From: Chitinophagaceae bacterium
Lineage (GTDB): Bacteria > Bacteroidota > Bacteroidia > Chitinophagales > Chitinophagaceae
Reading direction: 5' to 3'
Length of the DNA: 35,744 nucleotides
NCBI GenBank assembly: GCA_013140985.1
Contig: JABFRU010000022.1
Span: forward strand, 1 to 35,744
Shown here: positions 21,615 to 33,910 of the stretch, piece after piece
Layout: every line of letters starts with the position of its first letter
Position numbering within the stretch: the stretch's first letter is position 1
The notes under the pieces: model-generated
The model's input: only the letters and a program-made list of their open reading frames with translations
Database searches by the model: none
Told to the model about the DNA's origin: nothing
Made by a program: the position numbers and the translations under genes

Positions 21615-21623
21615 AACCACGAG

Positions 21624-22280
21624 ATGGCTTTAACGAAAGAACAAATTGCACAACGTATAGCAAGAGAATTGCGGGATGGATATTATGTAAATCTCGGGAT
21701 TGGCATACCTACATTGGTAGCCAATTATATTCCTCAGGGAATAAATGTCGTATTGCAAAGTGAAAATGGATTGTTGGGAATGGGTCCATTTCCTTTTGAG
21801 GGAGAAGAGAATCCCGATCTGATCAATGCAGGAAAGCAAACGATCACAACTGTACCCGGTTCGGCTTTTTTTGATTCAGCATTAAGCTTTGGAATGATAA
21901 GGGCAGGTAAAGTTGATCTGACGGTTCTCGGCGCCATGGAAGTAAGTGAAGAAGGTGATATTGCCAATTGGAAGATACCGGGCAAAATGGTGAAAGGTAT
22001 GGGCGGGGCAATGGATCTTGTAGCCAGTGCCAAGAATATCATTGTGGCTATGATGCATACAAATCCGAAAGGGGAGTCCAAACTATTACCTAAATGTGCA
22101 TTGCCCCTAACTGGCGTAAAATGCGTTAAGAAAATTGTTTCTGATATCGCTGTACTGGATGTGACACCCAATGGATTTAAATTATTGGAAAGAGCACCGG
22201 GAGTTACTGTTGAGGAAATAAAAATTAAAACAGCAGGGAAATTGATCGTAGAAGGAGATATTCCTGAAATGACTTTCTAA
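21624..22280 (+). CDS. scoB: 3-oxoacid CoA-transferase, subunit B
   Basis: The 218-aa product has LGIGIPTLVANY and the active-site motif QSENGLLGMGP; Glu47 would form the glutamyl-CoA thioester. TVLGAMEVSEEGDIANW and KGMGGAMDLV also fit the family. It pairs with the upstream subunit A. The gene is convergent with the first response regulator gene (gap 17 bp), with no clear terminator in between. Confidence 0.92.
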   Translation: MALTKEQIAQRIARELRDGYYVNLGIGIPTLVANYIPQGINVVLQSENGLLGMGPFPFEGEENPDLINAGKQTITTVPGSAFFDSALSFGMIRAGKVDLTVLGAMEVSEEGDIANWKIPGKMVKGMGGAMDLVASAKNIIVAMMHTNPKGESKLLPKCALPLTGVKCVKKIVSDIAVLDVTPNGFKLLERAPGVTVEEIKIKTAGKLIVEGDIPEMTF

Positions 22281-22297
22281 TCTTTCGACAGTCCAGG

Positions 22298-22948
22298 CTA
22301 TTCAATCAAATTATTTTTTACTGCAAAGAAAACCAGCCCTGCTGTATTCTTACTTCCAAACCGTTCCATCAGTCTGTCTTTAATGGCTTCCACCGTTCTT
22401 GGACTGATCTCCATTTTTTGTGCGATCTCAGCAGCAGTAAATTCCATACAGATAAAACGCAGCACATCTTTTTCTTTATCACTTAAAGTGATCTCATTAT
22501 TCAGAGAAGGCACTACTTTTTGACGGGAATGTGATTTCTTAAGCAGTATGCGATTCACAAAATTGTTCAGGTAATATCCTTTTTCAAAAACTTCCATGAT
22601 GGCCCGGCGTATCTCATTCGGCTCAGCATTTTTAAGCAAATAACCATTAGCACCGTTCTCCATAAGGTGATAAACAAAACGTTCATCTTCATACATGCTC
22701 AATACAAGCACTTTTATCTGCGGATATTGTTTGCTGACAGCTTTGGTGGTTTCAATACCATCCTTGCCGGGCATCCGCAGGTCCATTAGCACCACATCAG
22801 GTTCGGCAGAAGGAAGACCATTCAGCAGTTCTTCGCCATTATCGGCCTCCAATACAAATTTTATATTGGAATAGGGGCGCAGGGAAAGAATAACTCCCTT
22901 TCGAAAGATCTTGTGATCGTCAGCAATGGCTACCTTAATGATTCCCAT
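22298..22948 (-). CDS. NarL-type response regulator (cassette 1)
   Basis: The 216-aa product has a receiver domain (about 1-125) with the acidic pair ADDH, phospho-acceptor Asp56 in LMDLRMPG, the switch Ser in LVLSMYED and Lys in YLLKN. A LuxR-type helix-turn-helix follows (about 150-212: LSDKEKDVLRF, AEIAQKMEISPRTVEAIKDRL). It should act as a phosphorylation-dependent transcription factor. It lies 112 bp downstream of a histidine kinase gene and carries its own promoter-like sequence, so it may be transcribed both with the kinase and separately. It is one of four such regulators within 11.5 kb. Confidence 0.94.
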   Translation of the reverse strand: MGIIKVAIADDHKIFRKGVILSLRPYSNIKFVLEADNGEELLNGLPSAEPDVVLMDLRMPGKDGIETTKAVSKQYPQIKVLVLSMYEDERFVYHLMENGANGYLLKNAEPNEIRRAIMEVFEKGYYLNNFVNRILLKKSHSRQKVVPSLNNEITLSDKEKDVLRFICMEFTAAEIAQKMEISPRTVEAIKDRLMERFGSKNTAGLVFFAVKNNLIE

Positions 22949-22965
22949 AGTTATTAGATAGGGTG

Positions 22966-22993
22966 CAAAGTTAATAAGTTTATCAGTTCACAA
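22966..22993 (-). promoter_or_regulatory. Possible promoter of the cassette 1 response regulator
   Basis: On the minus strand, TTG (22993-22991), 17 bases, then TAACTTTG (22973-22966) resembles the Bacteroidota consensus, with a spacer two bases shorter than usual. It is in the gap between kinase and regulator, 17 bp from the regulator start. Confidence 0.4.
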
Positions 22994-23060
22994 GTCCATC
23001 TGTTTTCGGATATAAGATTTACCGGGGTAACAACTCCTCAACGGAAAGTTTGTGAACAAT

Positions 23061-23885
23061 TCATTGGTACGGTTCATCTTTGGGAAGCTCGATGGTGACT
23101 TTGTAATAGGTCTGGGAAATATCTTTTTCAAAATTGATATTGCCCTGCACCAGCCGCATGCGGCTGCTGATGTTCTTTAATCCAAGACCGATATTACTTT
23201 TATTCAGCTTGTCAAAATCAGATTGCACAATGCCCCGTCCGTCATGGTGGATGCGGAGGTAGAATTTATCGGCATGAACATTCTGGGTGAGGTGGATGAA
23301 ACTTGAATTGCTGTGTTTGAGAATATTATTGATCAGTTCCTGCACTACCCGGAAGATGATCAGTTCCTTTTCTTCCTTCAATCTCTCTTTATATTCATGG
23401 AAGCGGCTGCTTGCATTGATAGTGCCCGAACCACTGATCTTCTGGAAGAGATCGTTGATGGCTGATTCCAGTCCAAAATTCTTCAACGTGGGTGGCATCA
23501 GGCTATGGCTGATATTACGAACCAGTTGAATGGTATCATCAATGATCTGCCTTGCCTGGAAAATAGCCTGCAGTTGAGTGGCTTTATCCTGGTTCACCAG
23601 GTTTTCATTTAAGTACAAGCGGGCAGTAGCCAATAAAGGCCCGGCATCATCATGCAGGTCAGCAGCAAGCCGCTGTCTTTCTTCTTCCTGTAATTTAATA
23701 GAAGCATTCAGCAGGATCTTTTGCTGCTCCTGTTCCATTTGTGCAATGCGGTTCTGGAAACGAAGCACCCGGCGCTGGTGCATGATGAGAAAGATGATGA
23801 TACTGACCACTAAGACAACCATGCCCGCCGTGCCCAATAAGAGCACAGTGGATACAGAAGGTCCGTTGGTTTGGAGAAAGAACAT
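23061..23885 (-). CDS. HisKA_3-type sensor histidine kinase (cassette 1)
   Basis: The 274-aa product has one N-terminal membrane segment (about residues 13-35), a coiled-coil-like stretch, the HisKA_3 box EEERQRLAADLHDD with His78, and an HATPase domain with VQELINNILKHS (N box), HHDGRGI and GLGLKNISSRM (G boxes). It has no sensory domain of its own beyond the single helix. Signal input probably comes from the multi-TM protein encoded 23 bp upstream. Kinases of this family phosphorylate NarL-type regulators such as the one encoded 112 bp downstream. Confidence 0.93.
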   Translation of the reverse strand: MFFLQTNGPSVSTVLLLGTAGMVVLVVSIIIFLIMHQRRVLRFQNRIAQMEQEQQKILLNASIKLQEEERQRLAADLHDDAGPLLATARLYLNENLVNQDKATQLQAIFQARQIIDDTIQLVRNISHSLMPPTLKNFGLESAINDLFQKISGSGTINASSRFHEYKERLKEEKELIIFRVVQELINNILKHSNSSFIHLTQNVHADKFYLRIHHDGRGIVQSDFDKLNKSNIGLGLKNISSRMRLVQGNINFEKDISQTYYKVTIELPKDEPYQ

Positions 23886-23908
23886 AAGGGTTAGTGGTTG
23901 CAGGGTTT

Positions 23909-24604
23909 TTAAATCATGTCGAGATAAGGTATAGACCTAGAATTTTTTTTTGCATCATCTTTCGATTTAGATGAATAAAGATAAATGCCTATTGATACAA
24001 GAATGTTTTTGATCGTTTCAAAAATATAAGTCAAAAACCAATACCCCCTGACTGATTCTTTATCAATACCAGCCAAAATATTAAAGAAAAATGAACAGGA
24101 AAGATAAATCAAAATACCAGTGACTATAAAAAACCAGGGATTTTGATAGATATATTTATTTTTTGTGTTTTTAAATTGCTCAGAGAACAACAATATAACA
24201 TAAGTGAATATTAATATTGACTCAATTCCAATTGGCACCGAGTCTATCGTTTTAAACTTTGCCGTAAAGAAATAGGTGACTTGAAAAATAATAAACAGTA
24301 TGGAAAGTATTACTACTAACTGTTTCGCTCTTTTATTTTCTATCATCAGTAAAAGAGCCCAGGAAAAGAAAATATACTCTATAGTTGTATAAGAAGTTGT
24401 ATAGATGTGCCTGTTTAAGTCTGAAAGGGATTTGTCAAAGAATAAGAAAAGAAAAAATAATAAGGAGTAAGCTACTAGGGAGAACGTAACATATCCTCTC
24501 AGCTTTAACTTGTTGTAAAAAACTAAAAAAAGTAATACGGGAACGAGAAAGGAGTACTTAAGTACTTCAAAGCATATAGTTTCTATAGTAAGTAGGTTCG
24601 GCAA
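23909..24604 (-). CDS. Multi-pass membrane protein of signalling cassette 1
   Basis: I do not recognise a named family. The 231-aa product is strongly hydrophobic, with about seven membrane segments (near residues 13-30, 36-53, 72-88, 94-113, 124-140, 155-174, 186-206) and a basic C-terminal tail (KSKDDAKKNS). The only start available is a TTG at 24604; an in-frame stop lies 28-30 bp upstream and no ATG occurs until well inside the protein. It is 23 bp ahead of the histidine kinase gene. The same topology and position recur in cassette 2, so it is probably the sensory or ligand-binding partner of the kinase. A terminator-like hairpin directly precedes the TTG. Confidence 0.75.
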   Translation of the reverse strand: MPNLLTIETICFEVLKYSFLVPVLLFLVFYNKLKLRGYVTFSLVAYSLLFFLFLFFDKSLSDLNRHIYTTSYTTIEYIFFSWALLLMIENKRAKQLVVILSILFIIFQVTYFFTAKFKTIDSVPIGIESILIFTYVILLFSEQFKNTKNKYIYQNPWFFIVTGILIYLSCSFFFNILAGIDKESVRGYWFLTYIFETIKNILVSIGIYLYSSKSKDDAKKNSRSIPYLDMI

Positions 24605-24655
24605 AAAAAAGTTTTCTATATGAATGGATTTTCATCCAAATATAGAAAACCTTTT
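24603..24655 (-). terminator. Terminator-like hairpin abutting the TTG start of the membrane protein gene
   Basis: ATATAGAAAAC (24640-24650) pairs perfectly with GTTTTCTATAT (24611-24621), 11 bp. TGGAT/ATCCA pair again inside the loop. On the minus strand the stem is followed directly by eight T and then the TTG start codon of the membrane protein. The plus strand also has a T-run after the stem. It could end an upstream transcript or act as an attenuator for the cassette 1 operon. Confidence 0.65.
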
Positions 24656-24688
24656 TAAGAAATTTGAGTTCGGAGAACTCGTAGAAAC

Positions 24689-24748
24689 TTACTCGCCCCA
24701 AACAAGACCTTCAAGTTCCCAGCCGAGTGTTCTTTGATTCTTTTTCAT
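24689..24748 (-). CDS. Candidate 19-aa small ORF upstream of cassette 1
   Basis: The ORF encodes MKKNQRTLGWELEGLVWGE, ending 34 bp before the start of the hairpin that precedes the membrane sensor gene. Its first bases lie in an 18-base sequence (24742-24759) that recurs exactly at 32674-32691, again covering the ATG of a small ORF upstream of a response regulator. It might be a leader peptide or signal peptide for the cassette. Coding is unproven because an ORF this short can occur by chance. Confidence 0.3.
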   Translation of the reverse strand: MKKNQRTLGWELEGLVWGE

Positions 24749-24772
24749 AACAGTAACGTTTTTAAGCCTTTC

Positions 24773-24786
24773 GTAAATCGATTTAC
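24773..24786. promoter_or_regulatory. 14-bp perfect palindrome, operator candidate
   Basis: GTAAATCGATTTAC is a perfect palindrome 25 bp upstream of the 19-codon ORF. Symmetry suits binding of a dimeric regulator, but no second copy was noticed in the window. Confidence 0.35.
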
Positions 24787-25084
24787 CCGGTAAAAATTGA
24801 AATAAAGTGTATCGGGGACAATAATGGTTTCCTTTATTGAATCACATAAAAGGGCGTCAAATTCAATGTAGATAAGGATTTCAACGATTTTTAATGAGTA
24901 TAGTTACGAGCTGTAAATTGGTAATATTTCTTGCTAAAATTCGTAATTTTACTAGCATAAAAATAGTAAACCTACCGGGATAATTTACGGTTATCAACAG
25001 CTGTGGAAAAAAGAAAAGCGGATTTGCAAGGTCTCAGGCAAGACTAAGAGAGATATCCTTTACTGCAGGATTGAAAACTAAAAA

Positions 25085-25317
25085 CAAGTTGATTGACATT
25101 GGATTTTGCTTATGGCTTTCAATGGATTTGGAAATTCTGTTCAGGACGGTTTTACAGGACATTGGACGATTTGAGGGGCTCGATCCTTTATCAATCAACT
25201 TGGGTCAAAAATATATTCACATTCCAATGTGTGCAAGAGCAAATGCACTGCGTTTGCTGCACACAGTAATTACTATAAAAATCGTATCCGCCCGGATGTG
25301 AAATGAAAATATACGAT
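25085..25317 (+). ncRNA. Candidate structured RNA element, copy A
   Basis: CAAGTTGATTGA (25085-25096) and TCAATCAACTTG (25191-25202) form a perfect 12-bp closing stem. A strong hairpin follows at 25228-25265 (TGTGTGC and AGCAAA on the left arm, TTTGCT and GCACACA on the right, 3-nt bulge), then ATCGTAT/ATACGAT (25281-25287 and 25311-25317). The region resembles 32774-33040, which shares GGACATTGGA, TCAATCAACTT and CAAAA-TATATTCACA and also has a closing stem with different base pairs. Strand is chosen by comparison and is not certain. Confidence 0.45.
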
Positions 25318-25362
25318 AGGAGCGATGAAAAATTACGAACTGCTATCGGGATGATTATGAAA

Positions 25363-26025
25363 CTACATTGCCACAACGCCATTTCTGATAGCTACCATGG
25401 CCAGGCCTACCCTGCTTTTTACATCCAACTTAAAAAACAATTGATCTCTTAAGGTATCAACTGAACGGGGATTCAGGCCCATTTGCTGTGCGATCTCTTT
25501 ATACGTCAGATCGGAACATGCCAGTTTCAGAAATTGCAATTCCTGTTCGGACAACATGTTTTTTTGCAGGTTCATGTTTCCCTCAGAGTGGTTGCGAAAA
25601 AGATTGACCAGCTTACCGGTAGTATGGTTGGAATAATAATAGCCGGATTGAAAAACAGAACGAATAGCAAACTGCAACTCCGAAGGGGGTATGTCTTTTT
25701 TTAAAAACCCTTTTACACCAGCCTGCAGCAATCTTATCAATGAAAGCTCTGAGTCATACATGGTGAGCATCAATACATGCACCTGCGGCTGATGTTGTTG
25801 CAGCCAGGAGGCTGTTTCAAAACCATTCATTTCCGGCATATTCAGGTCGAGCAATACCACATCGGGTATATATCCTTGCGCTATTTTCCCAGATAGTTCT
25901 TTGCCATTACTGCATTGGTGCATTACTTTACAATCCCCAAAACTGTCTATCAGGGCCGCCAGGGCATTACGCAGCAATACATGATCATCGGCCATTGATA
26001 CTTTTATGACAGGATTTTTTTGCAT
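25363..26025 (-). CDS. NarL-type response regulator (cassette 2)
   Basis: The 220-aa product has a receiver domain with MADDH, phospho-acceptor Asp60 in VLLDLNMPE, switch Thr in MLTMYDS and Lys in FLKKD, followed by a LuxR-type helix-turn-helix (LSEQELQFLKL, YKEIAQQMGLNPRSVDTLRDQL). It is the most divergent of the four regulators here. The kinase gene ends 6 bp upstream, so the two are clearly co-transcribed and probably cognate. Confidence 0.94.
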   Translation of the reverse strand: MQKNPVIKVSMADDHVLLRNALAALIDSFGDCKVMHQCSNGKELSGKIAQGYIPDVVLLDLNMPEMNGFETASWLQQHQPQVHVLMLTMYDSELSLIRLLQAGVKGFLKKDIPPSELQFAIRSVFQSGYYYSNHTTGKLVNLFRNHSEGNMNLQKNMLSEQELQFLKLACSDLTYKEIAQQMGLNPRSVDTLRDQLFFKLDVKSRVGLAMVAIRNGVVAM

Positions 26026-26031
26026 AATTGA

Positions 26032-26817
26032 TCATTCAAAGGGAATAGTAAATGAAAGCAATGTGCCGCCACCGGGCCTGCTGCTGATATTCATGGTGCC
26101 TTTCAATATGCTGATCCGGGTTTGCATATTTTTCAGTCCTGCATGGCTTTTACAATCGTTTAATTCTGTATCAAAACCTTGTCCATCATCATTGATGCTG
26201 ATTAATAGATTTGTTTTATTGTAATGAAGGGATAATGTTGCCAATTTAGCCCTGGCATGTTTAATAATATTATTAAAGGCTTCTTGTATGATGCGGAAGA
26301 TGATCAGTTCTTTTTGTGCGTCTAAATAAACCGGCACTCCTGTAATGTTGAATTCTATAGTCAGGCTTGCTGCCTGCCTGATACGTTGTATTTCTTCTTC
26401 CAACGCCTGCAATAAACCCTGCTGGATGATAATATCGGCATTCAGGCTTTTGGAAATATCACTGAGTTGGGAAATGGAGCCACCCAATAACCCAATAGAG
26501 CTATTTATTTTTTCCCATGATTTGCCCTTATCTCCCCAATCCAGTGTATGCAGTTGCAGTTTGGCCAGTGTAAGTGAGAGAGTGATATTATCGTGTATCT
26601 CCCGGGAGATATGCTGAAAGGTTTGTTCCTGTATCTCAAGCTGGGTCTTTAAAAGGTTCTTTTCATAATTGGCCTCTATCTCATTTAATTTTTGCAGATA
26701 ACCTAATTGTTTTTTCCGATGTAAATAAATAATGAAGAAAATAAATACTGCCATAAGCATTATCAAAAAGAAAATAATGACAAGCAACGATGTTATGATG
26801 TTAATGGTGTTTTGCAT
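26032..26817 (-). CDS. HisKA_3-type sensor histidine kinase (cassette 2)
   Basis: The 261-aa product has one N-terminal membrane segment (about residues 8-31), a charged coiled-coil region, the phospho-acceptor box FQHISREIHDN (His75) and an HATPase domain (IIQEAFNNIIKHA, NDDGQGFD, GLKNMQTRISILKG, PGGGTLLSF). Its start overlaps the end of the membrane protein gene by 25 bp, and its stop is 6 bp from the regulator gene. It lacks a periplasmic sensor domain, as in cassette 1. Confidence 0.93.
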   Translation of the reverse strand: MQNTINIITSLLVIIFFLIMLMAVFIFFIIYLHRKKQLGYLQKLNEIEANYEKNLLKTQLEIQEQTFQHISREIHDNITLSLTLAKLQLHTLDWGDKGKSWEKINSSIGLLGGSISQLSDISKSLNADIIIQQGLLQALEEEIQRIRQAASLTIEFNITGVPVYLDAQKELIIFRIIQEAFNNIIKHARAKLATLSLHYNKTNLLISINDDGQGFDTELNDCKSHAGLKNMQTRISILKGTMNISSRPGGGTLLSFTIPFE

Positions 26818-27524
26818 GAAAAAGCTTTAGCCAAACAAAGAAATAAAATACTGAGTGACATGAAATGAAAGCTGAATGTGATTTCGTATAAATGACGATT
26901 CTGTTCATAAAGATGTGCCCCCATCAATAACAAAGGGAAAGAAACGATACAATAAAAGAACAGGCCGTTTACGATCCAAAATGCAGGGCTCGAAGCCAAA
27001 GATTTTTTAATTAAAACTTCTTTTGTCAGAAGGCAGTAAAAATAGTACAATGCGAAAGGGATTAAAAGCACAAACTCAATGGCATTAATGAGGAAACTCA
27101 TTCTATTGAGTTCGTTCATTTGTGTGTCTGGATCTAAAACCTTTTGAAAAAAAAAGATACAAATTCCCAAGAATATGATCCAGAGAATTTGAATAAGGAC
27201 CTTGATATTTTTTGAATTAAATAGATAAGTAAAGAAAAAAAAGAATACACTAAGTTCTATCATCTCAAAAACTGTATTACTTGACTCAAGGTAATATGTA
27301 TAACTTCTGCCTCGTAAACCCGAATAGTATTTGATGACATCTATATGAGTAGAAATCAAAATGGATATTACCGCATAAGAAAGGAAAAATTGGAATAGTT
27401 TTTCCTTTCTGTAATATTTTATACCGGCTATTATTGTAATCATCATACTAATTAGCCACAATGGATATGTATAATAACTTTTCTCGAAATATTTCAATAT
27501 ATAATCCCAAAACGATCCATCCAT
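26793..27524 (-). CDS. Multi-pass membrane protein of signalling cassette 2
   Basis: No named family is recognised. The 243-aa product has about seven membrane segments (near residues 18-35, 43-58, 84-101, 108-126, 142-162, 180-202, 213-235) and resembles the cassette 1 protein in size, topology and place, though residue similarity is low by eye. It starts at an ATG and overlaps the kinase start by 25 bp, suggesting translational coupling and a physical link to the kinase. It is divergent from the secreted protein genes that begin at 27834, and the shared 309-bp intergenic region may control both directions. Confidence 0.75.
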   Translation of the reverse strand: MDGSFWDYILKYFEKSYYTYPLWLISMMITIIAGIKYYRKEKLFQFFLSYAVISILISTHIDVIKYYSGLRGRSYTYYLESSNTVFEMIELSVFFFFFTYLFNSKNIKVLIQILWIIFLGICIFFFQKVLDPDTQMNELNRMSFLINAIEFVLLIPFALYYFYCLLTKEVLIKKSLASSPAFWIVNGLFFYCIVSFPLLLMGAHLYEQNRHLYEITFSFHFMSLSILFLCLAKAFSCKTPLTS

Positions 27525-27727
27525 ACCAGCAAATTAAAGCACTCTGTTTAAAGGCAAAAGAAAAAACTCTCCGAAAAAAACGTCCAAAAATGTTTTTTTC
27601 CCCTTGCCAGCCCGAAAAACATCTTCAAATTTGTTGTAAACAGTTCTTTGAGATGATTTAAACAACTAGGTTGTTGTTAATAGCACAAACAGTCAGTAAA
27701 GAACATTTTTTTCATACTGTTTTTCTC

Positions 27728-27758
27728 ATGGCAGCGGTATTGCCTCCCTATAGTTTTG
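27728..27758 (+). promoter_or_regulatory. Possible promoter in leader copy 1
   Basis: TAGTTTTG (27751-27758) fits TAnnTTTG and is conserved in the second leader. A conserved TCTCATGG block precedes it with a poorly conserved 19-base spacer in both copies, the spacing of Bacteroidota promoters, although ATGG is not a good -33 box. It implies a 5' leader of about 70 bases. It overlaps the small ORF 27728-27829, and both readings cannot easily be true in full. Confidence 0.45.
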
Positions 27759-27829
27759 GTGAATCATTGGCCAAATGCTGCGGGGATGCCGAAAACCGGG
27801 TATTAAACAGAGTAGGCAAGAAAAACTAG
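27728..27829 (+). CDS. Candidate 33-aa small ORF in leader copy 1
   Basis: The ORF starts MAAVLPPYSFGESLAK and ends in AENRVLNRVGKKN, four bases before the downstream start codon. Leader copy 2 encodes a related 34-aa peptide ending AENRVLNRVGRKIY. In the shared core several DNA differences are synonymous (GTA/GTT, TTA/TTG, AAC/AAT) and others conservative (Asp/Asn, Lys/Arg), which favours coding. The N-terminal parts differ, and the overlap with a promoter-like sequence argues against. Function unknown. Confidence 0.35.
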   Translation: MAAVLPPYSFGESLAKCCGDAENRVLNRVGKKN

Positions 27830-27833
27830 TAAA

Positions 27834-28352
27834 ATGAAAAAATTATTTTTTTATCTGTTTTCGGCCGTATGTTTAGCTATAAACAGCCAGGCCCAGGAGA
27901 ATAAAACCGCTCCGCCGGAAATAAGCCATCCATGCCCTCTTGGTATGTGTGTATCTTCTGCTATGTTCCATATTGACCTGTTTAATTTTCACAAACCCAG
28001 AACGGAATGCAAAAGTGGTTTTGGATTTTGCGTAAAAGGCCATTGGGAGTATTCTTGTGGCTTTTACCCTAATTGTGTGGGCACAATTAATACTGGCAAA
28101 GCTGCAAAGATTGAAAATGGTAAAGCATTCTGTTGGTTTAATATTGTTGATGGAAAGCTCGAACTTCATATTCCGTTGGAATTAGAGAAGCTTGAAGAAT
28201 ACCAGGATGTTGATTTTTCCGTATTTACCATTGATACAGATATGATTTTCTTAAAAAATGACCAGGGAAAAGTTGTTGCGAAAGCAAAAGAAGGCGATTA
28301 TCCTGTCAAAAAAACGGAAGAAGAGTTTGTTATCATTATTGATCTTGAATAA
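27834..28352 (+). CDS. Secreted Cys-rich protein of unknown function
   Basis: I do not recognise a family. The 172-aa product has a signal peptide (MKKLFFYLFSAVCLAINSQAQ). The middle third contains seven cysteines with neighbouring aromatics (HPCPLGMC, ECKSGFGFCVKGHWEYSCGFYPNC). The C-terminal half is acidic and likely beta-rich (GKLELHIPLELEKLEEY, EEFVIIIDLE). The cysteines suggest disulfides outside the cytoplasm. It follows leader copy 1 and is divergent from signalling cassette 2. A 10-bp inverted repeat lies just after the stop. Confidence 0.7.
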   Translation: MKKLFFYLFSAVCLAINSQAQENKTAPPEISHPCPLGMCVSSAMFHIDLFNFHKPRTECKSGFGFCVKGHWEYSCGFYPNCVGTINTGKAAKIENGKAFCWFNIVDGKLELHIPLELEKLEEYQDVDFSVFTIDTDMIFLKNDQGKVVAKAKEGDYPVKKTEEEFVIIIDLE

Positions 28353-28359
28353 TTAACAC

Positions 28360-28394
28360 AATATGCAGCTGCTTTTAGTGAGTGGCTGCATATT
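28360..28394 (+). terminator. Stem-loop after the Cys-rich secreted protein gene
   Basis: AATATGCAGC (28360-28369) and GCTGCATATT (28385-28394) form a perfect 10-bp stem with a 15-nt loop. Only a weak T-rich stretch follows, so it may be a poor terminator or an mRNA 3'-end stabiliser. Confidence 0.5.
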
Positions 28395-28407
28395 CAATAT
28401 TTAATCG

Positions 28408-29007
28408 ATGAAGTCTATAATTTGCATCAGTTTATTTTTTGTAAGTATTTCCATTTTTTCTTGCAAAGCTCTTATTTCAAAGAAGTACCATTTCAATGAA
28501 AAGTTTGAATTCACGAAAAAAGAGGAATACAATTCTTTTTTAAAGAATAAAAAAGGGTTTGATCTTTCCAGGGTTATTTACCCTGATTCGAACTCGTATC
28601 AAATTTTTCTAGGGGAATTGATATCGAGTGATCTGATTGTTTATTATGGATGTTTGAAAAATGATAGTACCGAAATGATCAAATCCCCGGAGTTAAAAGA
28701 TAATCTCGGTTGTGCAGGACGTATTTTAGCGGAGATCAAAACCAATGATGCTTCTTCAGATTTAATGAATAAGTCATTATTTACAAAAAGTAATTTCAGG
28801 CAATTCAGCTTTAAATACCTTGATGATAACAGGTCGTTTAATGTTAATGAGTCAAATAAGAAACTTAAAGTGATCTTGATATACTCATTTTCGGGCGGAA
28901 CATATTATGATGGATACTATAAAGACATCCAGGATTATTTTATTAAACACCAGGCTGATGTGGATTTGTATATTATTACACTAGATCCCGTTTCAAGATT
29001 ACTTTAG
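28408..29007 (+). CDS. Lipoprotein of unknown function
   Basis: The 199-aa product has a lipoprotein signal (SISIFSC, Cys at residue 19). No family is recognised. The C-terminal 50 residues (KLKVILIYSFSGGTYYDGYY, then DVDLYIITLDPV) read like a beta-alpha-beta fold reminiscent of thioredoxin-like proteins, but there is no CxxC, so a redox role is not supported. It lies between the two leader-plus-secreted-protein units, 55 bp after the first, and may share its transcript. Confidence 0.65.
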   Translation: MKSIICISLFFVSISIFSCKALISKKYHFNEKFEFTKKEEYNSFLKNKKGFDLSRVIYPDSNSYQIFLGELISSDLIVYYGCLKNDSTEMIKSPELKDNLGCAGRILAEIKTNDASSDLMNKSLFTKSNFRQFSFKYLDDNRSFNVNESNKKLKVILIYSFSGGTYYDGYYKDIQDYFIKHQADVDLYIITLDPVSRLL

Positions 29008-29163
29008 GATTGTTAGAGTCTGTAATAGCAGACTGTTAAACCACTAGTATTGTTTTTTACTCCTGAACCAACCAGAAGCACTTGCAAATTTGTTTTAAAC
29101 AACAAAGTCGTTGTTAACAACACAACTGGTCAGGAAAGAACATTTTTTCATGATGGATTTCTC

Positions 29164-29194
29164 ATGGCAGGGGATAAACGATCCGATAGTTTTG
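29164..29194 (+). promoter_or_regulatory. Possible promoter in leader copy 2
   Basis: TAGTTTTG (29187-29194) occurs at the same place as in copy 1, again 19 bases after CATGG. The spacer bases differ between copies while the boxes are kept, as expected for a promoter. Confidence 0.45.
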
Positions 29195-29268
29195 GTTCAT
29201 CATTAGGCCAATGCTACGGGAATGCCGAAAACCGGGTTTTGAATAGAGTAGGCAGAAAAATTTATTAA
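29164..29268 (+). CDS. Candidate 34-aa small ORF in leader copy 2
   Basis: The ORF starts MAGDKRSDSFGSSLGQ and ends AENRVLNRVGRKIY, with its stop one base before the next start codon. It parallels the 33-aa ORF of copy 1. A longer in-frame extension to 29050 exists, but copy 1 has a frame change and stop in the matching part, so only the 3' portion could be a conserved peptide. Confidence 0.35.
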   Translation: MAGDKRSDSFGSSLGQCYGNAENRVLNRVGRKIY

Positions 29269-29269
29269 A

Positions 29270-29902
29270 ATGAAAAAGATCATTTATCTGTTGTCGTTCC
29301 TGGTTTTAAGCAAACTAACTTTGGCACAACCAGGCCAGCAGACAATAACAGTAAGCTTAATTAATGATGCGGAGCTTACTGCTTCAATACGAAATTTGTT
29401 TAATGGCTTGTCCTGTAACCAGGAAAAAGTGGTTAATTATTCAGGAATCCCTTCATTTAATGAGAGTGATTTTGATTTTACTGCCATTTATGAAAGCCAA
29501 AAAACCGGGAAATCTGAAATTGCTTATTCTGTAAAGCACAAAGCTTCTACTGGCAATTCAGATTTTGCATTTTCCGTATTCATGGATAAAGGGGTACTTA
29601 AAAATCCAATGCTAATAGCTACGATTTCTGACAGATCAAAAATAGTTTATCACCAACTTGAAGAGAACAAGTCTTTTGAAGTGAGTAATATTGATAAGGT
29701 GGTTACTTACAGCAGTCACGATGTGGATTATGGTGGAGAAACAAAGAAAGGTAGTGGATGCGGGAATTGTGTTAGTAATTGCATTTCGGATGCTTATACA
29801 AATCATGGCTGGGTTTCTGTGTGGGCGTTTATTCAAAGTATTTTTGTTCCTGCTACCGGGGTGGGTATTGCAATTGGATGCATAGCCAGTTGCTGTAATT
29901 AA
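29270..29902 (+). CDS. Secreted protein with Cys/Gly-rich hydrophobic tail (possible peptide toxin precursor)
   Basis: No family is recognised. The 210-aa product has a signal peptide (MKKIIYLLSFLVLSKLTLAQ) and a beta-rich middle. The last 50 residues are distinctive: GSGCGNCVSNCISDAY, a Trp-containing segment, then VPATGVGIAIGCIASCCN. Six cysteines and a Gly/Ala/Ile-rich stretch resemble the mature part of some membrane-active bacteriocins, though those usually have short leaders rather than a 160-residue region. An 85-aa two-TM protein is encoded 11 bp downstream, the usual place of an immunity gene. Toxin activity is inference. Confidence 0.65.
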   Translation: MKKIIYLLSFLVLSKLTLAQPGQQTITVSLINDAELTASIRNLFNGLSCNQEKVVNYSGIPSFNESDFDFTAIYESQKTGKSEIAYSVKHKASTGNSDFAFSVFMDKGVLKNPMLIATISDRSKIVYHQLEENKSFEVSNIDKVVTYSSHDVDYGGETKKGSGCGNCVSNCISDAYTNHGWVSVWAFIQSIFVPATGVGIAIGCIASCCN

Positions 29903-29913
29903 AAAATAGGGTT

Positions 29914-30171
29914 ATGAAATTAACAAACTTGGTTTTGTTTTATCTATTACTTGCAATCCCACTTGCTTGTTTGATTATTCTTGCAAGAACTAAACTAATA
30001 GGTGATGAATTTTTTGTTTTTGGTTTAATTAGTTGGGGTTTTATATATCATCCCTTAGTCTGTGGATTGAGATTGCTGGGTAGCAATAAAATAAGGAGAT
30101 CCGAGTTTTTAATGAATTTTGTCCCTTTCTGGAATTTAAAATACTTTCTTTTTTTATTTTTCAATAAGTAG
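29914..30171 (+). CDS. Small two-TM membrane protein (possible immunity protein)
   Basis: The 85-aa product has a first hydrophobic segment at about residues 5-24, a second at about 31-54, a basic stretch (GSNKIRRSE) and a hydrophobic aromatic end (WNLKYFLFLFF). No named family is recognised. It begins 11 bp after the secreted Cys/Gly-tail protein and on the same strand, so the two are probably co-expressed. Small membrane proteins next to secreted peptides often confer self-protection, but it could equally take part in export. Confidence 0.6.
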   Translation: MKLTNLVLFYLLLAIPLACLIILARTKLIGDEFFVFGLISWGFIYHPLVCGLRLLGSNKIRRSEFLMNFVPFWNLKYFLFLFFNK

Positions 30172-30251
30172 AGATCACATCCTGCTATTTTTTATCAAAT
30201 CGGTTTTGTTTCATTACTGGCAACGTCGCCTAAATCTTGAAAACATAAAAA

Positions 30252-31070
30252 ATGAAACCTCTTTTGCTAATATTATATTGGCTCTGGCCATGCTTTGCTA
30301 TCGCCCAGGCAAAAGAGGTTTCATCTCTTTCAAAAAAAGATACAATCAAACCAACGCAGCGCCAGGTACAACCTTATAAACCCGAAATACTCACTTCCGG
30401 TTTTATTGATATTGTTAACAACGGCCAGGTAAATGCATCAGCAAGATTTATAAGATTATTTATTGGGGAACCGGGAAAATTTGCTGTTCCCCTTTCCATT
30501 TACAGCGGTGTTTCTTCCAATAATTTTCAAAATCAACAAACAACTGCGGGTATAAGGTCTAATGAACACCTGGTAAATGGCTTTATCAATCCGCTCAGCG
30601 GTCTCGCCAATATTTCTATCGATGGGATTGTTTTTTTTAAAAAGCAGCCTGCAAAGATCACCAGAACCGGTCTCCTGTATCATGGTGGTACAAGGATACT
30701 CACAGGTTATAAAACAGGACCTATTACCAGTCCTTCTACAGGCAAGCCGATCAATTTCTTAAATAGTTTTATCACAGCAGGTTTCTATTTTCAAACAGGG
30801 GCATGGGAAAGAAACAATGCAAAAAATGTAGGCATCTTCTGGTTAGCAGGTCGCTATATCCTGTGTAAAACAAATGAAAAACAATTGCAGGATATAACTC
30901 CATCAATTCAAACTAATGGATTGTATCATGGCTGGTCATTGGCCTGGGGTGTGGAGATCAACAGCCTCGTTAATATCAAAGTGATCTATTATAAATATGT
31001 AAAAAAGCCTGAGATCGATTTCTCCTTACCCATCTACCAGTTTTCTTTCAACTATTCACTAAGAAGCTAG
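30252..31070 (+). CDS. Exported protein, probable outer-membrane beta-barrel, unknown function
   Basis: The 272-aa product has a signal peptide (residues 1-20, ending CFAIAQA) and a disordered, Lys/Gln-rich stretch (about 21-45). Alternating strands follow (FAVPLSIYSGVSSN, NFLNSFITAGFYFQTGAW, LVNIKVIYYKYV), ending YQFSFNYSLRS, a typical barrel terminus. I do not recognise a family. It stands 80 bp beyond the putative immunity gene and 86 bp before an orphan response regulator on the same strand. Confidence 0.65.
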   Translation: MKPLLLILYWLWPCFAIAQAKEVSSLSKKDTIKPTQRQVQPYKPEILTSGFIDIVNNGQVNASARFIRLFIGEPGKFAVPLSIYSGVSSNNFQNQQTTAGIRSNEHLVNGFINPLSGLANISIDGIVFFKKQPAKITRTGLLYHGGTRILTGYKTGPITSPSTGKPINFLNSFITAGFYFQTGAWERNNAKNVGIFWLAGRYILCKTNEKQLQDITPSIQTNGLYHGWSLAWGVEINSLVNIKVIYYKYVKKPEIDFSLPIYQFSFNYSLRS

Positions 31071-31093
31071 CAGCTTGAACAGGGATAGAATAA

Positions 31094-31113
31094 TTTTAGT
31101 AGAAATACTAAAA
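31094..31113. promoter_or_regulatory. Operator-like inverted repeat upstream of orphan regulator 31157
   Basis: TTTTAGTA (31094-31101) and TACTAAAA (31106-31113) form a perfect 8-bp inverted repeat around GAAA. The central 13-mer AGTAGAAATACTA recurs with one change upstream of the other orphan regulator (33074-33086). The position, about 45-60 bp before the start codon, suits an operator. Confidence 0.45.
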
Positions 31114-31156
31114 AAGAGTACTTTTACGCAAAATCACCAACCCTAATAAACCAAGC

Positions 31157-31816
31157 ATGACTGCCACACAGGAGATCAAAGTAGCAATTGCCGATGACCA
31201 TAAAATTTTTCGTGACGGCATCCGTATGGCGCTGAAAGATAAAGAGTACCTGAAAATACTCTGGGAAGCCGAAGACGGAAAAGACCTGATGCATAAGCTG
31301 AAGCTTAAGCTCCCCGATGTAATATTAATGGATATCCGGATGCCGGAAGTGGACGGCATCAATGCCATCAGCCTCATCCGCAAAGAATATGAGTCGCTGA
31401 AGATAATCGTTCTAACCATGTACGATGACCAGGAGATGATCACAAGGATGATGGAGATGGGGGCCAATGCATACCTCACCAAGACCACTGACCCGGAAGA
31501 GATCTACCAGGCCATTCTCACCTGCATGAACGATGATTTTTATTTTAATGAACTGGTGAACAAAGCCGTATTGCTGAAACTGCAGCATAAGAAAACAGTG
31601 AGGCAGTTTTATCCCAATCCTGTTAAGTTCTCCGAGAAGGAAATAAAGATCTTGAAACTGATAGCAGAAGATAAAACCACAGAAGAAATTTCAAAAGAAG
31701 TTTTCCTGAGCCCCCGCACTATTGAAACGATCCGCCAGAACATGAAACAAAAAGTGGGAGCCAAAACAATTGCCGGGCTGGTGATGTATGGCATGCGCAA
31801 CAAGCTGCTGGAGTAA
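31157..31816 (+). CDS. Orphan NarL-type response regulator
   Basis: The 219-aa product has IADDH, phospho-acceptor Asp59 in ILMDIRMPE, switch Thr in VLTMYDD, Lys in YLTKT, and a LuxR-type helix-turn-helix (FSEKEIKILKL, TEEISKEVFLSPRTIETIRQNM). No histidine kinase is adjacent. The next gene, 14 bp downstream, is a methyltransferase. It is closer in sequence to the 33169 regulator than to the cassette 2 regulator, by shared features such as FNELxNKA. A kinase from either local cassette could act on it. Confidence 0.94.
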   Translation: MTATQEIKVAIADDHKIFRDGIRMALKDKEYLKILWEAEDGKDLMHKLKLKLPDVILMDIRMPEVDGINAISLIRKEYESLKIIVLTMYDDQEMITRMMEMGANAYLTKTTDPEEIYQAILTCMNDDFYFNELVNKAVLLKLQHKKTVRQFYPNPVKFSEKEIKILKLIAEDKTTEEISKEVFLSPRTIETIRQNMKQKVGAKTIAGLVMYGMRNKLLE

Positions 31817-31830
31817 AAACGTTCACCTAC

Positions 31831-32577
31831 ATGTCAAACGTCAACGATAATTTTTTTGATGGACACTATAAAGACATCTGGAAAACAATCATACCGGGTG
31901 TGCTTACCGAAAAAGAAGTGGATTTTATGCTGCCCTATTTCAACTTGAAAGAAGGCAGTAAAGTGCTGGACCTTATGTGCGGTTATGGCCGTCATGCAAT
32001 TGCTTTGGCTAAAAAGGGAATTGAGGTAACAGCCGTTGATAATCTTGCTGAGTACATCAGCGAAATAAAAAACGCAGTAGAAAAAGAAAACCTGGCTGTG
32101 AAAGCAATACGATCGGGTGTGCTGGCATTTTCAACAGATGAAAAATTCGATCTGGCGATTTGCATGGGCAACAGCATTAATTTTTTTGACGCCAGCGATA
32201 CAGAAAGATTGTTGAAGAACGTTTCTTCTTTTTTAAAACCGGGGGGGCGGTTGTTGATAAACAGCTGGTCTATTGCTGAAATAGCTATCAGGAGTTTTAA
32301 AGAAAAAAGCGAGAATGAGATCGGCGACCTGAAATTTCAAACGGAAGCTCAATTTCTTTTTCATCCTGCCCGAATAGAATCGGAAAGCACTACTACTGAT
32401 AAGAATGGAAAAACAGAAATAAAAAAGGGGATCGATTATATTTTTTCTATCAATGAAATGGAAACTATGCTTTCTAAGGCTGGTTTTTCACTGAAAGAGG
32501 TTTACAGTATCCCCGGCCGTAAAAAATTTACAATAGGCGAACCCCGGGCCTATTTAGTAGCGGAGAAGAACCCTTGA
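31831..32577 (+). CDS. Class I SAM-dependent methyltransferase
   Basis: The 248-aa product has the Rossmann-type SAM-binding motif VLDLMCGYGRHAIALAKKG with the acidic residue of VTAVD, then LAICMGNSINFF and FLKPGGRLLINSW. It lacks the NPPY motif of DNA adenine methyltransferases, so a small molecule, lipid or protein substrate is more likely; the substrate is unknown. It lies 14 bp after the orphan response regulator and is almost certainly co-transcribed with it. Confidence 0.9.
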   Translation: MSNVNDNFFDGHYKDIWKTIIPGVLTEKEVDFMLPYFNLKEGSKVLDLMCGYGRHAIALAKKGIEVTAVDNLAEYISEIKNAVEKENLAVKAIRSGVLAFSTDEKFDLAICMGNSINFFDASDTERLLKNVSSFLKPGGRLLINSWSIAEIAIRSFKEKSENEIGDLKFQTEAQFLFHPARIESESTTTDKNGKTEIKKGIDYIFSINEMETMLSKAGFSLKEVYSIPGRKKFTIGEPRAYLVAEKNP

Positions 32578-32648
32578 TTTCGCTGACCTGGCTGTTTTAA
32601 CCACAATCAGAAATCATTTATACACATCAATCAGTGGTCAAAAATAAA

Positions 32649-32671
32649 CCCCGGCGTTATGAGGACCGGGG
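32649..32671. terminator. GC-rich stem-loop CCCCGG/CCGGGG
   Basis: The stem is 6 bp with an 11-nt loop. On the minus strand a T-rich run follows, as in a terminator, but no minus-strand gene lies there. On the plus strand it follows the methyltransferase stop by 71 bp and has no T-run. Confidence 0.4.
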
Positions 32672-32685
32672 CTACGTTACTGTTA

Positions 32686-32784
32686 TGAAAAGAAAAATTT
32701 TTAAACTTTCACTTGATAAGGATGGGTTGTTCTGCTTGTTTATGTTGGTTTTAAAAACGGGTTCTGCAAAAAGAGAAAGTTGAC
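32686..32784 (+). CDS. Candidate 32-aa small ORF upstream of orphan regulator 33169
   Basis: The ORF begins MKRKIFKLSLDKDGLF and ends in TGSAKRES. The start codon lies in the 18-base sequence shared exactly with the small ORF ahead of cassette 1. The N-terminus loosely recalls leader peptides of Bacteroidota ribosomal peptides (KLSLDK), but the rest does not look like a precursor. Its last codons overlap the left arm of the structured element. Weak evidence. Confidence 0.25.
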
Positions 32785-33040
32785 TGGCCGGTGAAGTGTC
32801 TCCCGGTTGAAACCGGGTTGGTTTTTACATTGGATATTGAAATGACTTTCTGGACGGTATTTGGACATTGGATGAGTAGGATAAAGACAGTTCATCCCGT
32901 GTCAATCAACTTTCTGAGACAAAAGTATATTCACAGTGAGATGTTAACAATAGCACAACTGCCCTATTTGAAGTATTCGGTATTTACTGATGCTGTCGTA
33001 TAAGTTCTACAATTACCTCGTACAGTTACTTTTTATACGA
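32774..33040 (+). ncRNA. Candidate structured RNA element, copy B
   Basis: AGAAAGTTGA (32774-32783) pairs with TCAACTTTCT (32906-32915), a perfect 10-bp long-range stem. TCGTATAA (32996-33003) pairs with TTATACGA (33033-33040). Copy A has the same two-stem layout with different outer base pairs in the first stem (compensatory changes), which supports a conserved fold. It ends about 130 bp before the orphan regulator start and might be its leader or a separate RNA. Confidence 0.45.
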
Positions 33041-33073
33041 TAAATCCCGGTACTTTCTGCAAATGTTAAATCA

Positions 33074-33086
33074 AGTAGTAATACTA
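33074..33086. promoter_or_regulatory. Operator-like motif AGTAGTAATACTA
   Basis: This 13-mer matches the one upstream of the other orphan regulator at 12 of 13 positions and keeps the AGTA/TACT symmetry. It lies 82 bp before the start codon of the 33169 gene. Confidence 0.4.
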
Positions 33087-33168
33087 TGGTATATGTTGCA
33101 GGATTTTTTCATCTTGCATCGCAGAATAATTACTTGAAACCAATTTTTTTTCTACTAATAATCCAATT

Positions 33169-33843
33169 ATGAAAAATCCCGAAACCAACACCGTTATTAA
33201 AGTAGCCATTGCTGACGATCATGCTTTGTTCCGCACTGGTGTAAAGACTTCCCTGCAGGCCCGTAAAGATATCCAGATGGTGGCAGAAGCAGAAAATGGA
33301 ATGCAACTGCTGAATTTGTTGCGCCATATAAAGCCCGATGTGGTTTTATTGGATATCCAGATGCCTGTAATGGATGGATTAACGGCGCTGCCGGAGATCA
33401 AAAAATTATATCCTGATATTAAAGTGATCATGCTTTCTTTCTTGAATGATCATTCTGTGATCTCAAAAATGATGGAAATAGGTGCCAACTCTTATATTAC
33501 TAAAGAGTCCGGCGCTGACATGATATATGAAGCTATCCGTGGTGTATTTGAAAATGACTTTCATTTCAATGAGCTTACTAATAAAGCATTGTTGAGCGGT
33601 TTGCGTACTAAACGTACAACAGAATCTAACATGCCGCAGGACGTACAGCTTACTGAAAAAGAAATTACGATACTTAAGCTAATGTGCGACGAGAAAAGCA
33701 CTAAAGAGATCGCTGATATTGTTGACCTGAGCCCCCGCACCGTAGAAGCTATCAGGGATAAACTCAAAACAAAAACCGGTACCAAGTCGATGGCTGGTCT
33801 GGTGATGTATGCAGTGAAAGCTGGTCTCGTAGAACAAGCATAA
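33169..33843 (+). CDS. Orphan NarL-type response regulator
   Basis: The 224-aa product has IADDH, phospho-acceptor Asp62 in LLDIQMPV, switch Ser in MLSFLND, Lys in YITKES, and a LuxR-type helix-turn-helix (LTEKEITILKL, TKEIADIVDLSPRTVEAIRDKL). No kinase gene is adjacent. It has a long upstream region with the structured element and operator-like motif and its own terminator, so it forms a single-gene unit. Confidence 0.94.
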   Translation: MKNPETNTVIKVAIADDHALFRTGVKTSLQARKDIQMVAEAENGMQLLNLLRHIKPDVVLLDIQMPVMDGLTALPEIKKLYPDIKVIMLSFLNDHSVISKMMEIGANSYITKESGADMIYEAIRGVFENDFHFNELTNKALLSGLRTKRTTESNMPQDVQLTEKEITILKLMCDEKSTKEIADIVDLSPRTVEAIRDKLKTKTGTKSMAGLVMYAVKAGLVEQA

Positions 33844-33866
33844 TTTTTCCCGGCAAGCATATTTAT

Positions 33867-33894: not shown

Positions 33895-33910
33895 ATTTTA
33901 CTTTGGATGA

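What the first reader, a model, noticed from the sequence alone, without database searches (positions are those of the whole stretch)
22298..33843. Two paralogous sensor cassettes, two orphan regulators and secreted small proteins: a candidate undescribed peptide-signalling or antagonism system
Seen: two copies of the order multi-TM protein, single-TM HisKA_3 kinase, NarL-type regulator (minus), two more NarL-type regulators (plus), and between them duplicated leader plus signal-peptide gene units and a small two-TM protein. Known: kinases lacking a sensor domain often rely on a partner membrane protein, as in peptide quorum sensing. Inference: the multi-TM proteins sense a product of the island and the regulators drive the secreted genes.
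Basis: partly seen in the sequence, partly recalled or inferred. Interest (0 to 1): 0.75.

Follow-up and report, generated by a model that had tools for sequence, protein, structure and literature searches.

The report
Sensor cassettes beside RNA-led secreted peptides
In a Bacteroidota genome, an old cluster of sensor kinases and regulators sits beside secreted-protein genes led by a known but unexplained RNA element, one of which ends in a bacteriocin-like peptide, and beside two apparently undescribed small RNA genes; this looks like a way of controlling small secreted weapons or signals.

Summary
In detail: two TM-HK-RR cassettes, two more NarL-type regulators, and secreted genes behind a duplicated leader. 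The one-system reading is only partly right. (1) RRa-HKa-TMa, RRc and RRd form an old core locus (HKa orthologue in 54 of 147 family genomes). None of S1-S4 was found at 21 other such loci. (2) The leader is Rfam's DUF805b cis-regulatory RNA, just under cut-off in the window and above it in three relatives. It, or a close look-alike, lies divergent from RRb/HKb/TMb-like genes and ahead of unrelated small or secreted genes in seven other genera. So cassette b, not a, is the plausible partner; the enrichment is modest (p 0.03-0.06). (3) S3 ends in a Cys-bracketed domain that elsewhere is a double-glycine-leader peptide in a bacteroidetocin-type locus; the two-TM S4 accompanies it in 9 of 12 loci. 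(4) Two candidate small RNAs of 130-150 nt (25073-25203, 32764-32914, minus) keep a promoter and an upstream dyad across genera, also at unlinked sites. Best reading: cassette b with DUF805b-led bacteriocin-like cargo, inserted into an older regulator and small-RNA locus. Regulation and toxicity are inferred, not shown.

The parts
22298..22948 (-). RRa, NarL-type response regulator of core cassette a
   Evidence: Pfam Response_reg + GerE; median identity 90% over 22 rows, one genome counted twice
23061..23885 (-). HKa, single-TM HisKA_3 kinase of cassette a
   Evidence: Pfam; orthologue in 54 of 147 family genomes, own included, at E<=1e-85
23909..24604 (-). TMa, multi-TM protein of cassette a, fast evolving
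   Evidence: no Pfam hit; related to TMb by profile and median identity 37%
25073..25203 (-). candidate small RNA c; 13 other c copies lie 236-370 nt from RRc, here the insert separates them
   Evidence: model R1 E=7.7e-23 (window copies were in the training set); alignment A3; distances
25206..25236 (-). promoter of small RNA c (TTG-N20-TATTTTTG, with CACAT..ATGTG between the boxes)
25269..25288 (-). upstream dyad of small RNA c (7 of 10 positions)
25363..26025 (-). RRb, NarL-type response regulator of cassette b
   Evidence: Pfam
26032..26817 (-). HKb, single-TM kinase of cassette b
   Evidence: Pfam
26793..27524 (-). TMb, multi-TM protein of cassette b
27654..27841 (+). leader 1, holding a DUF805b RNA match at 27779-27818
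   Evidence: Rfam RF02914 33.3 bits, E 5e-8, cut-off 35.6
27834..28352 (+). S1, secreted Cys-rich protein
   Evidence: homologue behind the same leader core in G011
28408..29007 (+). S2, secreted or lipoprotein-like partner of S1
   Evidence: C-terminal similarity to the gene after the S1 homologue in G011, 2e-4 in a single comparison
29091..29277 (+). leader 2, holding a DUF805b RNA match at 29215-29254
   Evidence: Rfam RF02914 34.4 bits, E 2e-8, cut-off 35.6
29270..29902 (+). S3, secreted protein whose C-terminal part (29756-29899) is a double-glycine-peptide-like domain
29914..30171 (+). S4, two-TM protein, partner and candidate immunity protein of S3
   Evidence: S4-like gene beside the domain gene in 9 of 12 loci, 3 of the 9 being the profile's own members
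30252..31070 (+). OM, secreted barrel-like protein of unknown role
   Evidence: one relative at the 21 other HKa loci: G126, 64% identity
31157..31816 (+). RRc, orphan NarL-type regulator of the core
   Evidence: Pfam; median identity 92% over 20 rows
31831..32577 (+). MT, methyltransferase, neighbour of RRc at many core loci
   Evidence: Pfam; synteny
32764..32914 (-). candidate small RNA d, divergent from RRd
   Evidence: model R1 E=9.3e-17 (window copies were in the training set)
32920..32950 (-). promoter of small RNA d
32983..33002 (-). upstream dyad of small RNA d (9 of 10 positions)
33169..33843 (+). RRd, orphan NarL-type regulator of the core
   Evidence: Pfam; median identity 84% over 13 rows

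Best explanation
The stretch is a composite. An old core locus (TMa-HKa-RRa, RRc, MT, RRd) carries two divergently transcribed candidate small RNAs. Into it, between small RNA c and RRc, has come a second sensor cassette (TMb-HKb-RRb) with its own cargo: two gene pairs (S1-S2 and S3-S4), each behind a DUF805b cis-regulatory RNA. Proposed mechanism: TMb and HKb sense an outside cue and phosphorylate RRb; RRb turns on the divergent cargo promoters; DUF805b RNA in the 5' leader adds control of translation or transcription; the cargo is exported by Sec; S3's C-terminal Cys-bracketed domain acts as a bacteroidetocin-like peptide, with S4 as its membrane partner, probably immunity. Shown by sequence: gene order, DUF805b match, recurrence of cassette-type genes plus DUF805b-like element plus small or secreted gene with unrelated cargo, homology of the S3 domain to double-glycine peptides, S4 linkage. 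Inferred: insertion as the direction of change, sensing, RRb control, DUF805b action, toxicity, immunity.
For: Leaders match RF02914 (33.3 and 34.4 bits); relatives pass its 35.6 cut-off in G074 and G003 and G138. Such elements or look-alikes lie divergent from cassette-b-type genes in G074, G048, G003 and G021, G138 and G058 (G058 only 27.0 bits) and G033, where two stand in tandem as in the window. G021 keeps RRb and the led secreted gene in the core locus without HKb or TMb. G011 has the leader core before an S1 homologue. The S3 domain is a 65-aa GG-leader peptide in G119, in a locus with an S4-like gene, a TM protein, a thioredoxin-like protein and a peptidase-type ABC transporter, and a 62-aa GG-leader peptide plus S4-like gene in G753. 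The S4-like gene is adjacent in 9 of 12 domain loci. S1-S4 were not found at 21 other HKa loci.
Against: Enrichment of DUF805b-like elements at cassettes is modest: 7 elements at 6 of 89 loci around HKb-like kinases (662 kb, window excluded) against 1 in 680 kb of background and core-only DNA, p 0.03 by elements and 0.06 by loci. Most of these loci have none, and an Rfam scan at cut-off of 20 of them found no DUF805b. G048 and G021 are linked by similarity to the window leader, not by Rfam, and G033 by pattern only. The window copies fall just below the Rfam cut-off. S3 has no GG leader and no peptidase or transporter among the neighbours examined. The S3 model is weak (pLDDT 54) with no fold match. 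No binding site for RRb was identified.
Confidence: 0.5

Rival explanations
1. Chance neighbourhood: DUF805b-led secreted genes are common accessory genes in this group and landed beside a stable regulator locus without any regulatory tie to cassette b.
For: A DUF805b-like element also occurs away from cassettes (locus L213 of G055, 1 in 400 kb of background). Association p is 0.03-0.06. The secreted proteins of the window have no homologues at the other HKa loci. Most loci around HKb-like kinases lack the element.
Against: In eight genera, the window's included, the element or a look-alike is divergent from genes of the RRb/HKb/TMb type, with small or secreted cargo.
Confidence: 0.3
2. Pheromone reading: the S3 C-terminal peptide is mainly a signal sensed by TMb-HKb (three-component peptide signalling), not a toxin.
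For: A sensor cassette lies divergent from genes for Cys-bracketed peptides, including small ones in G033 (85 aa) and G138 (71 aa). TMb diverges fast (median identity 24%) while RRb is kept at 64%, as expected for a receptor of a changing ligand.
Against: The domain's relative with a double-glycine leader in G119 sits in a bacteroidetocin-type export locus. I noted no TM-HK-RR cassette in the parts of L049 and L164 that were printed, but did not search them for one.
Confidence: 0.15
3. One reading: both cassettes and both orphan regulators form one system that senses and drives the secreted genes.
For: Physical clustering in the window.
Against: The core persists without any of S1-S4 at 21 other loci; no DUF805b-like element with 0-1 mismatch at 15 core-only loci; the small-RNA dyad is not upstream of S1 or S3.
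Confidence: 0.05
4. For the small RNAs: the inverted-repeat elements are miniature transposons or DNA operators rather than transcribed RNAs.
For: Terminal inverted repeat; several dispersed copies in some genomes; covariation support is weak.
Against: Fixed place upstream of RRc and RRd in many genera; a promoter matching TTG-N18-21-TAnnTTTG just before the stem in 21 of 24 locus copies (about 0.06 of 24 in shuffles) and in 9 of 14 unlinked copies; a dyad at nearly fixed distance in 26 of 35 copies against 4% in shuffles; a T-rich stretch after the stem in the copies aligned.
Confidence: 0.15

Closest known systems
DUF805b RNA (Rfam RF02914, clan CL00115)
   Same: Both leaders match over the whole 35-position model; core 34-49 nt before the start codon in the six led genes measured
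   Different: Window scores are 1-2 bits below the curated cut-off; the genes led are secreted Cys-containing proteins; I know of no function for it, and the paper I recalled as its source was not held
Bacteroidetocins (Coyne et al. 2019, PMC6671954, passages read)
   Same: S3's C-terminal domain is shared with a GG-leader peptide in a locus holding TM protein, thioredoxin-like protein and peptidase-type ABC transporter (G119)
   Different: S3 carries a Sec-type signal and a ~130-residue carrier part, has no GG leader and no export genes among the neighbours examined; [quoted passage not shown]
LuxO-Qrr and GacA-Rsm circuits (recalled; only search listings seen)
   Same: Multi-copy small RNAs with a shared promoter and upstream dyad, some divergent from a response-regulator gene
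   Different: No homology tested; no CsrA link or target known; different phylum
FopS paralogous sRNAs of Bacteroides (PMC11697453, passages read)
   Same: Paralogous sRNAs with sigma-ABfr promoters in Bacteroidota
   Different: The paper says FopS was deposited in Rfam; our two sites match no Rfam family credibly even at E<=10 (whether the FopS model is in this copy was not checked); its long closing stem differs from FopS's 5' single strand plus terminator hairpin
DesK/LiaS-like HisKA_3 kinases with NarL-type regulators (recalled)
   Same: Membrane sensor, HisKA_3 kinase, NarL-type regulator
   Different: The multi-TM part is a separate protein of a family without a Pfam match of note (19 members scanned, best E 0.007 in single members)

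Membership tests
DUF805b RNA (RF02914) | Score at or above the curated cut-off (35.6 bits) | tested here: inconclusive
   Window copies 33.3 and 34.4 bits, E 5e-8 and 2e-8; related copies G074 43.6, G003 35.8, G138 38.7 pass; G011 30.7 and G058 27.0 do not; G048 and G021 not reported
DUF805b RNA (RF02914) | Cis position upstream of a gene, full-length match | tested here: met
   Model positions 1-35 matched in both; core 45 nt before the ATG of S1 and of S3
Bacteroidetocin | 15-16-aa leader ending in GG | tested here: not met
   S3 starts with a hydrophobic signal-like segment; the homologues in G119 and G753 do have a GG leader
Bacteroidetocin | Mature peptide of about 42-48 aa with at least two cysteines | tested here: inconclusive
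   C-terminal domain of ~46 residues with two invariant Cys in 10 of 10 aligned members; cleavage of S3 is unknown
Bacteroidetocin | Peptidase/ABC transporter, TM protein and thiol oxidoreductase nearby | tested here: not met
   None among the genes of window 18315-34774 scanned with Pfam; the rest of the contig was only listed, not annotated. Present in the G119 locus (transporter judged from its sequence)
Bacteroidetocin | Kills Bacteroidales | not testable with these tools
   needs bench work
Peptide three-component signalling (peptide, sensor kinase, regulator) | Exported peptide sensed by the neighbouring kinase | not testable with these tools
   neighbourhood only
Qrr/Rsm-type regulator-sRNA circuit | Several sRNA copies sharing promoter and upstream site, one or more beside the regulator gene | tested here: met
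   as sequence features only, transcription not shown
Qrr/Rsm-type regulator-sRNA circuit | The neighbouring response regulator drives the sRNA | not testable with these tools
   co-occurrence only: 14 of 14 sRNA-positive and 2 of 15 sRNA-negative genomes that could be compared have HKa, p=1.5e-6, phylogeny not corrected
6S RNA (6S-Flavo, RF01685) | Matches the Rfam model | tested here: inconclusive
   no match in the genome, but the controls were also empty; no RF01685 match at the two sites

The most novel reading that the evidence does not exclude
A recurring mobile unit of Bacteroidota: a TM-HK-RR cassette coupled to DUF805b-led genes for Cys-bracketed secreted peptides (toxins or pheromones, with exchangeable cargo), here nested in an older three-regulator locus whose real output is a multi-copy small-RNA family switched by its NarL-type regulators through a TTTAC-N10-GTAAA site, comparable in logic to LuxO-Qrr or GacA-Rsm.
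Probability: 0.3. Interest if true: 0.82.

Novelty: new variant of a known kind. Interest (0 to 1): 0.62.

Why it matters
DUF805b RNA has, as far as I recall, no known role; finding it before bacteriocin-like secreted genes next to a defined sensor cassette gives it a testable context. The S3-S4 family would put a bacteroidetocin-type domain on Sec-exported carriers with a dedicated membrane partner, where the passages read on bacteroidetocins report no obvious immunity protein. The small-RNA family, if real and controlled by the adjacent regulators, would be a regulator-sRNA circuit in a phylum where I know of none; full-text searches for Chitinophagaceae + small RNA + response regulator and Chitinophaga + sRNA + two-component held no paper, which covers open-licence papers only.

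Tried and rejected
Considered and dropped: (a) Leader as a coding peptide: 16 differences in 95 nt, 6 synonymous to 10 non-synonymous in the best frame, and a 4-nt gap in G074 breaks that frame. (b) Small RNA as an open reading frame: no frame is kept across 23 copies. (c) TM proteins as a known family: only weak single-member Pfam hits in 19 members, best E 0.007; PDB profile search gave weak rhodopsin matches, E about 0.1. (d) My own first conclusion that the secreted genes have nothing to do with the cassettes: revised when the leader was searched. (e) S3 fold: no match at E <= 0.001. (f) TMa structure: seven helices but pLDDT 48, not used. (g) Plasmid search for the domain: nothing. (h) A guessed small-RNA target pattern in the window: none.

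Counts and dropped rows: of 24 inverted-repeat copies, L045_c was left out of alignment A3 (23 rows). Of 14 unlinked copies, 9 matched the promoter pattern, whose -7 box was also the selection, so '9 of 9' would be partly circular; 2 more were added by hand for the dyad test (24 + 11 = 35 copies). The order search scored only 17 of roughly 700-2600 first-look candidates per genome, so 15 of 198 is a lower bound; in the own genome 150 of 2138 were scored. For the HKa comparison I could use 14 of 15 RNA-positive genomes (G667 was not) and 15 of 20 listed RNA-negative ones; 163 further negatives are not listed by the tool. G048 is not caught by the 0-1 mismatch pattern. The 12 rows with 2 mismatches (of 22 rows) were treated as noise; shuffles gave 10 such hits. 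L125 repeats L047. One S3 match (G051) has a stop inside and was not used further.

Papers: PMC6671954 and PMC11697453, passages only; all others, search listings only; the paper I recalled as the DUF805b source was not held; LuxO-Qrr, GacA-Rsm and the DUF805b background are recalled; the Bacteroidota promoter consensus is recalled, with sigma-ABfr promoters also named in the PMC11697453 passages. Names DesK, NVEALA and C39-type peptidase are recalled labels.

Full report
What is there. The window is a complete 35744-base contig of a 3.86-Mb genome. The multi-TM proteins TMa and TMb belong to one family (hhalign probability 98.7) for which 19 scanned members give only weak single Pfam hits.

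The core is old. An HKa orthologue at E <= 1e-85 is in 54 of 147 family genomes and 39 of 101 genera, own genome included, one per genome. In many of the loci fetched, RRa-HKa-TMa lies next to the CoA-transferase pair, with RRc and, in many, MT, RRd and an aminotransferase IV on the other side; the b cassette, where present, sits at varying places. Median identity to the window is 90% for RRa, 81% for HKa, 92% for RRc, 84% for RRd, but 37% for TMa. The membrane sensor changes quickly while the regulators hardly change.

The secreted genes are accessory. At 21 other loci with HKa, tblastn at E <= 0.05 finds none of S1-S4 and one homologue of OM, in G126. In 147 family genomes S3 has 3 matches outside the window genome, one of them with a stop inside, and S1 has one.

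The leader is a known RNA element. With the permissive threshold both leaders match Rfam RF02914, DUF805b RNA, over the whole model: 33.3 bits at 27779-27818 and 34.4 bits at 29215-29254, cut-off 35.6. The gathering-threshold scan therefore did not list them. blastn with the leader against the fetched loci found it in G074 (divergent from TMb, at the contig end), G048 (before a 203-aa lipoprotein-like protein with a Cys-rich end, divergent from TMb), G003 (before a 209-aa secreted protein, divergent from an HKb relative), G021 (before a 182-aa protein with a Cys-rich end, divergent from RRb, with no HKb or TMb there) and G011 (before the S1 homologue). Rfam puts G074 and G003 above cut-off and G011 below it; it does not report G048 or G021. 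Two regions first fetched as comparison material, G138 and G058, turned out to hold TM-HK-RR cassettes with a divergent DUF805b match (38.7 and 27.0 bits), and G033 holds a cassette with two tandem elements before an 85-aa Cys-bracketed small protein and a 192-aa secreted protein (pattern match only). That makes seven genera besides the window's.

How strong is that association. With a pattern of 0-1 mismatches there are, outside the window, 7 elements at 6 of 89 loci around HKb-like kinases (3 of 16 cassette-b loci, 2 of 53 and 1 of 20 others; 662 kb), none at 15 core-only loci (280 kb) and one in 20 background stretches (400 kb). The binomial p is 0.03 by elements and 0.06 by loci. An earlier test, made before G138 and G058 were seen to hold cassettes and counting them as controls, gave p 0.02 with G048 and 0.08 without. 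An Rfam scan at cut-off of 20 of these loci found no DUF805b. The association is suggestive, and most such loci lack the element.

S3-S4 is a peptide module. S3's last 46 residues share invariant C, D, Y, N, G, S, P and C positions with nine other members. In G119 the domain is a 65-aa peptide with a double-glycine leader, followed by an S4-like gene, a 214-aa TM protein, a thioredoxin-like protein and a 734-aa peptidase-type ABC transporter (the transporter judged by eye). That is the gene set reported for bacteroidetocins (PMC6671954, passages), plus the S4-like gene. G753 has a second such peptide of 62 aa with an S4-like gene. Elsewhere the domain ends a longer protein, lipoprotein-like by eye in five (L063, L064, L073, L075, L165); L048 and L070 are longer frames without a clear signal, L072 and L074 short frames. 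An S4-like gene is adjacent in 9 of 12 distinct loci at E < 1e-5, three of them the members the profile was built from; L073 is weak, L063 and L072 have none by profile. The domain is rare: 9 of 395 class genomes at E <= 0.01, five of them near threshold and probably chance, and 5 of 395 phylum genomes at E <= 0.001, the window genome included. No solved structure and no paper text with six motif strings was found. S1-S2 is probably a similar pair: in G011 an S1 homologue (1e-15) is followed by a gene whose end resembles S2 (2e-4, single comparison).

Two candidate small RNAs. Upstream of RRc and RRd across genera lies a 106-134-nt element closed by AAGTTGATTG...CAATCAACTT. On the strand divergent from the regulators it follows a promoter TTG-N18-21-TAnnTTTG in 21 of 24 copies, against about 0.06 of 24 in shuffles, and is followed by a T-rich tract. 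The stem is paired in 94.6% of cells against 15-49% when slid, but covariation is weak because the stem hardly varies: 2 pairs with both sides changed, covariation score reached by 19 of 500 shuffles. Single-sequence fold z-scores run from -1.8 to -3.7 in six copies. No reading frame is kept. Rfam gives nothing credible at either site. Two copies were found in the own genome, both in the window (150 of 2138 candidates scored). In an order-wide sample 15 of 198 genomes match, with up to 7 copies, many unlinked to the regulators; this is a lower bound. A dyad TTTAC-N10-GTAAA at a nearly fixed distance upstream reaches 8 of 10 positions in 26 of 35 copies against 4% of shuffles. Of the genomes that can be compared, 14 of 14 with the RNA have HKa, and 2 of 15 without it do (p 1.5e-6, no correction for phylogeny, model trained on HKa genomes). 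In the window the c copy is cut off from RRc by about 6 kb of genes, whereas 13 other c copies lie 236-370 nt away.

Reading. I take the stretch as an older regulator and small-RNA locus into which a cassette-b unit with DUF805b-led cargo has come, one of its cargo pairs being a bacteroidetocin-like peptide module. Every regulatory arrow is inference.

Noticed in passing
L164 9989-10165 (-): A second double-glycine-leader peptide (58 aa) with ABC-type transport genes around it lies beside the S3-domain peptide in G753.
   Followed up: no
L231 1438-1695 (-) and L194 4647-4862 (+): Small DUF805b-led proteins of 85 and 71 aa, both with a hydrophobic stretch bracketed by two cysteines near the C terminus, stand divergent from TM-HK-RR cassettes: possible unrecognised peptide toxins or signals.
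   Followed up: partly
window 30252-31070: OM, a secreted barrel-like protein without Pfam match, has a 64% identical relative beside TMb and a Cys-rich secreted gene in G126 (L045 5895-6650), so it may belong to the cassette-b cargo.
   Followed up: partly
window 25206-25236: Between the promoter boxes of small RNA c lies a palindrome CACAT-N5-ATGTG; a strict pattern finds it in 8 of 24 locus copies (window d has only a looser form) and 0 of 9 unlinked copies tested: a possible second regulator site.
   Followed up: partly
L070 5488-8031: Downstream of the Algoriphagus S3-S4 pair are two 58-aa Cys-containing exported peptides (NVEALA-like, name recalled) with larger exported proteins between them.
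   Followed up: no
L054 402-2564: G027 has a further TM-HK-RR cassette near the core locus, closer to a (HK 150 bits, RR 249 bits) than to b.
   Followed up: no
alignment A7: One of 19 TM-family members gives a weak Pfam DUF805 hit (E 0.009), curious beside an RNA family named after DUF805; probably chance.
   Followed up: no
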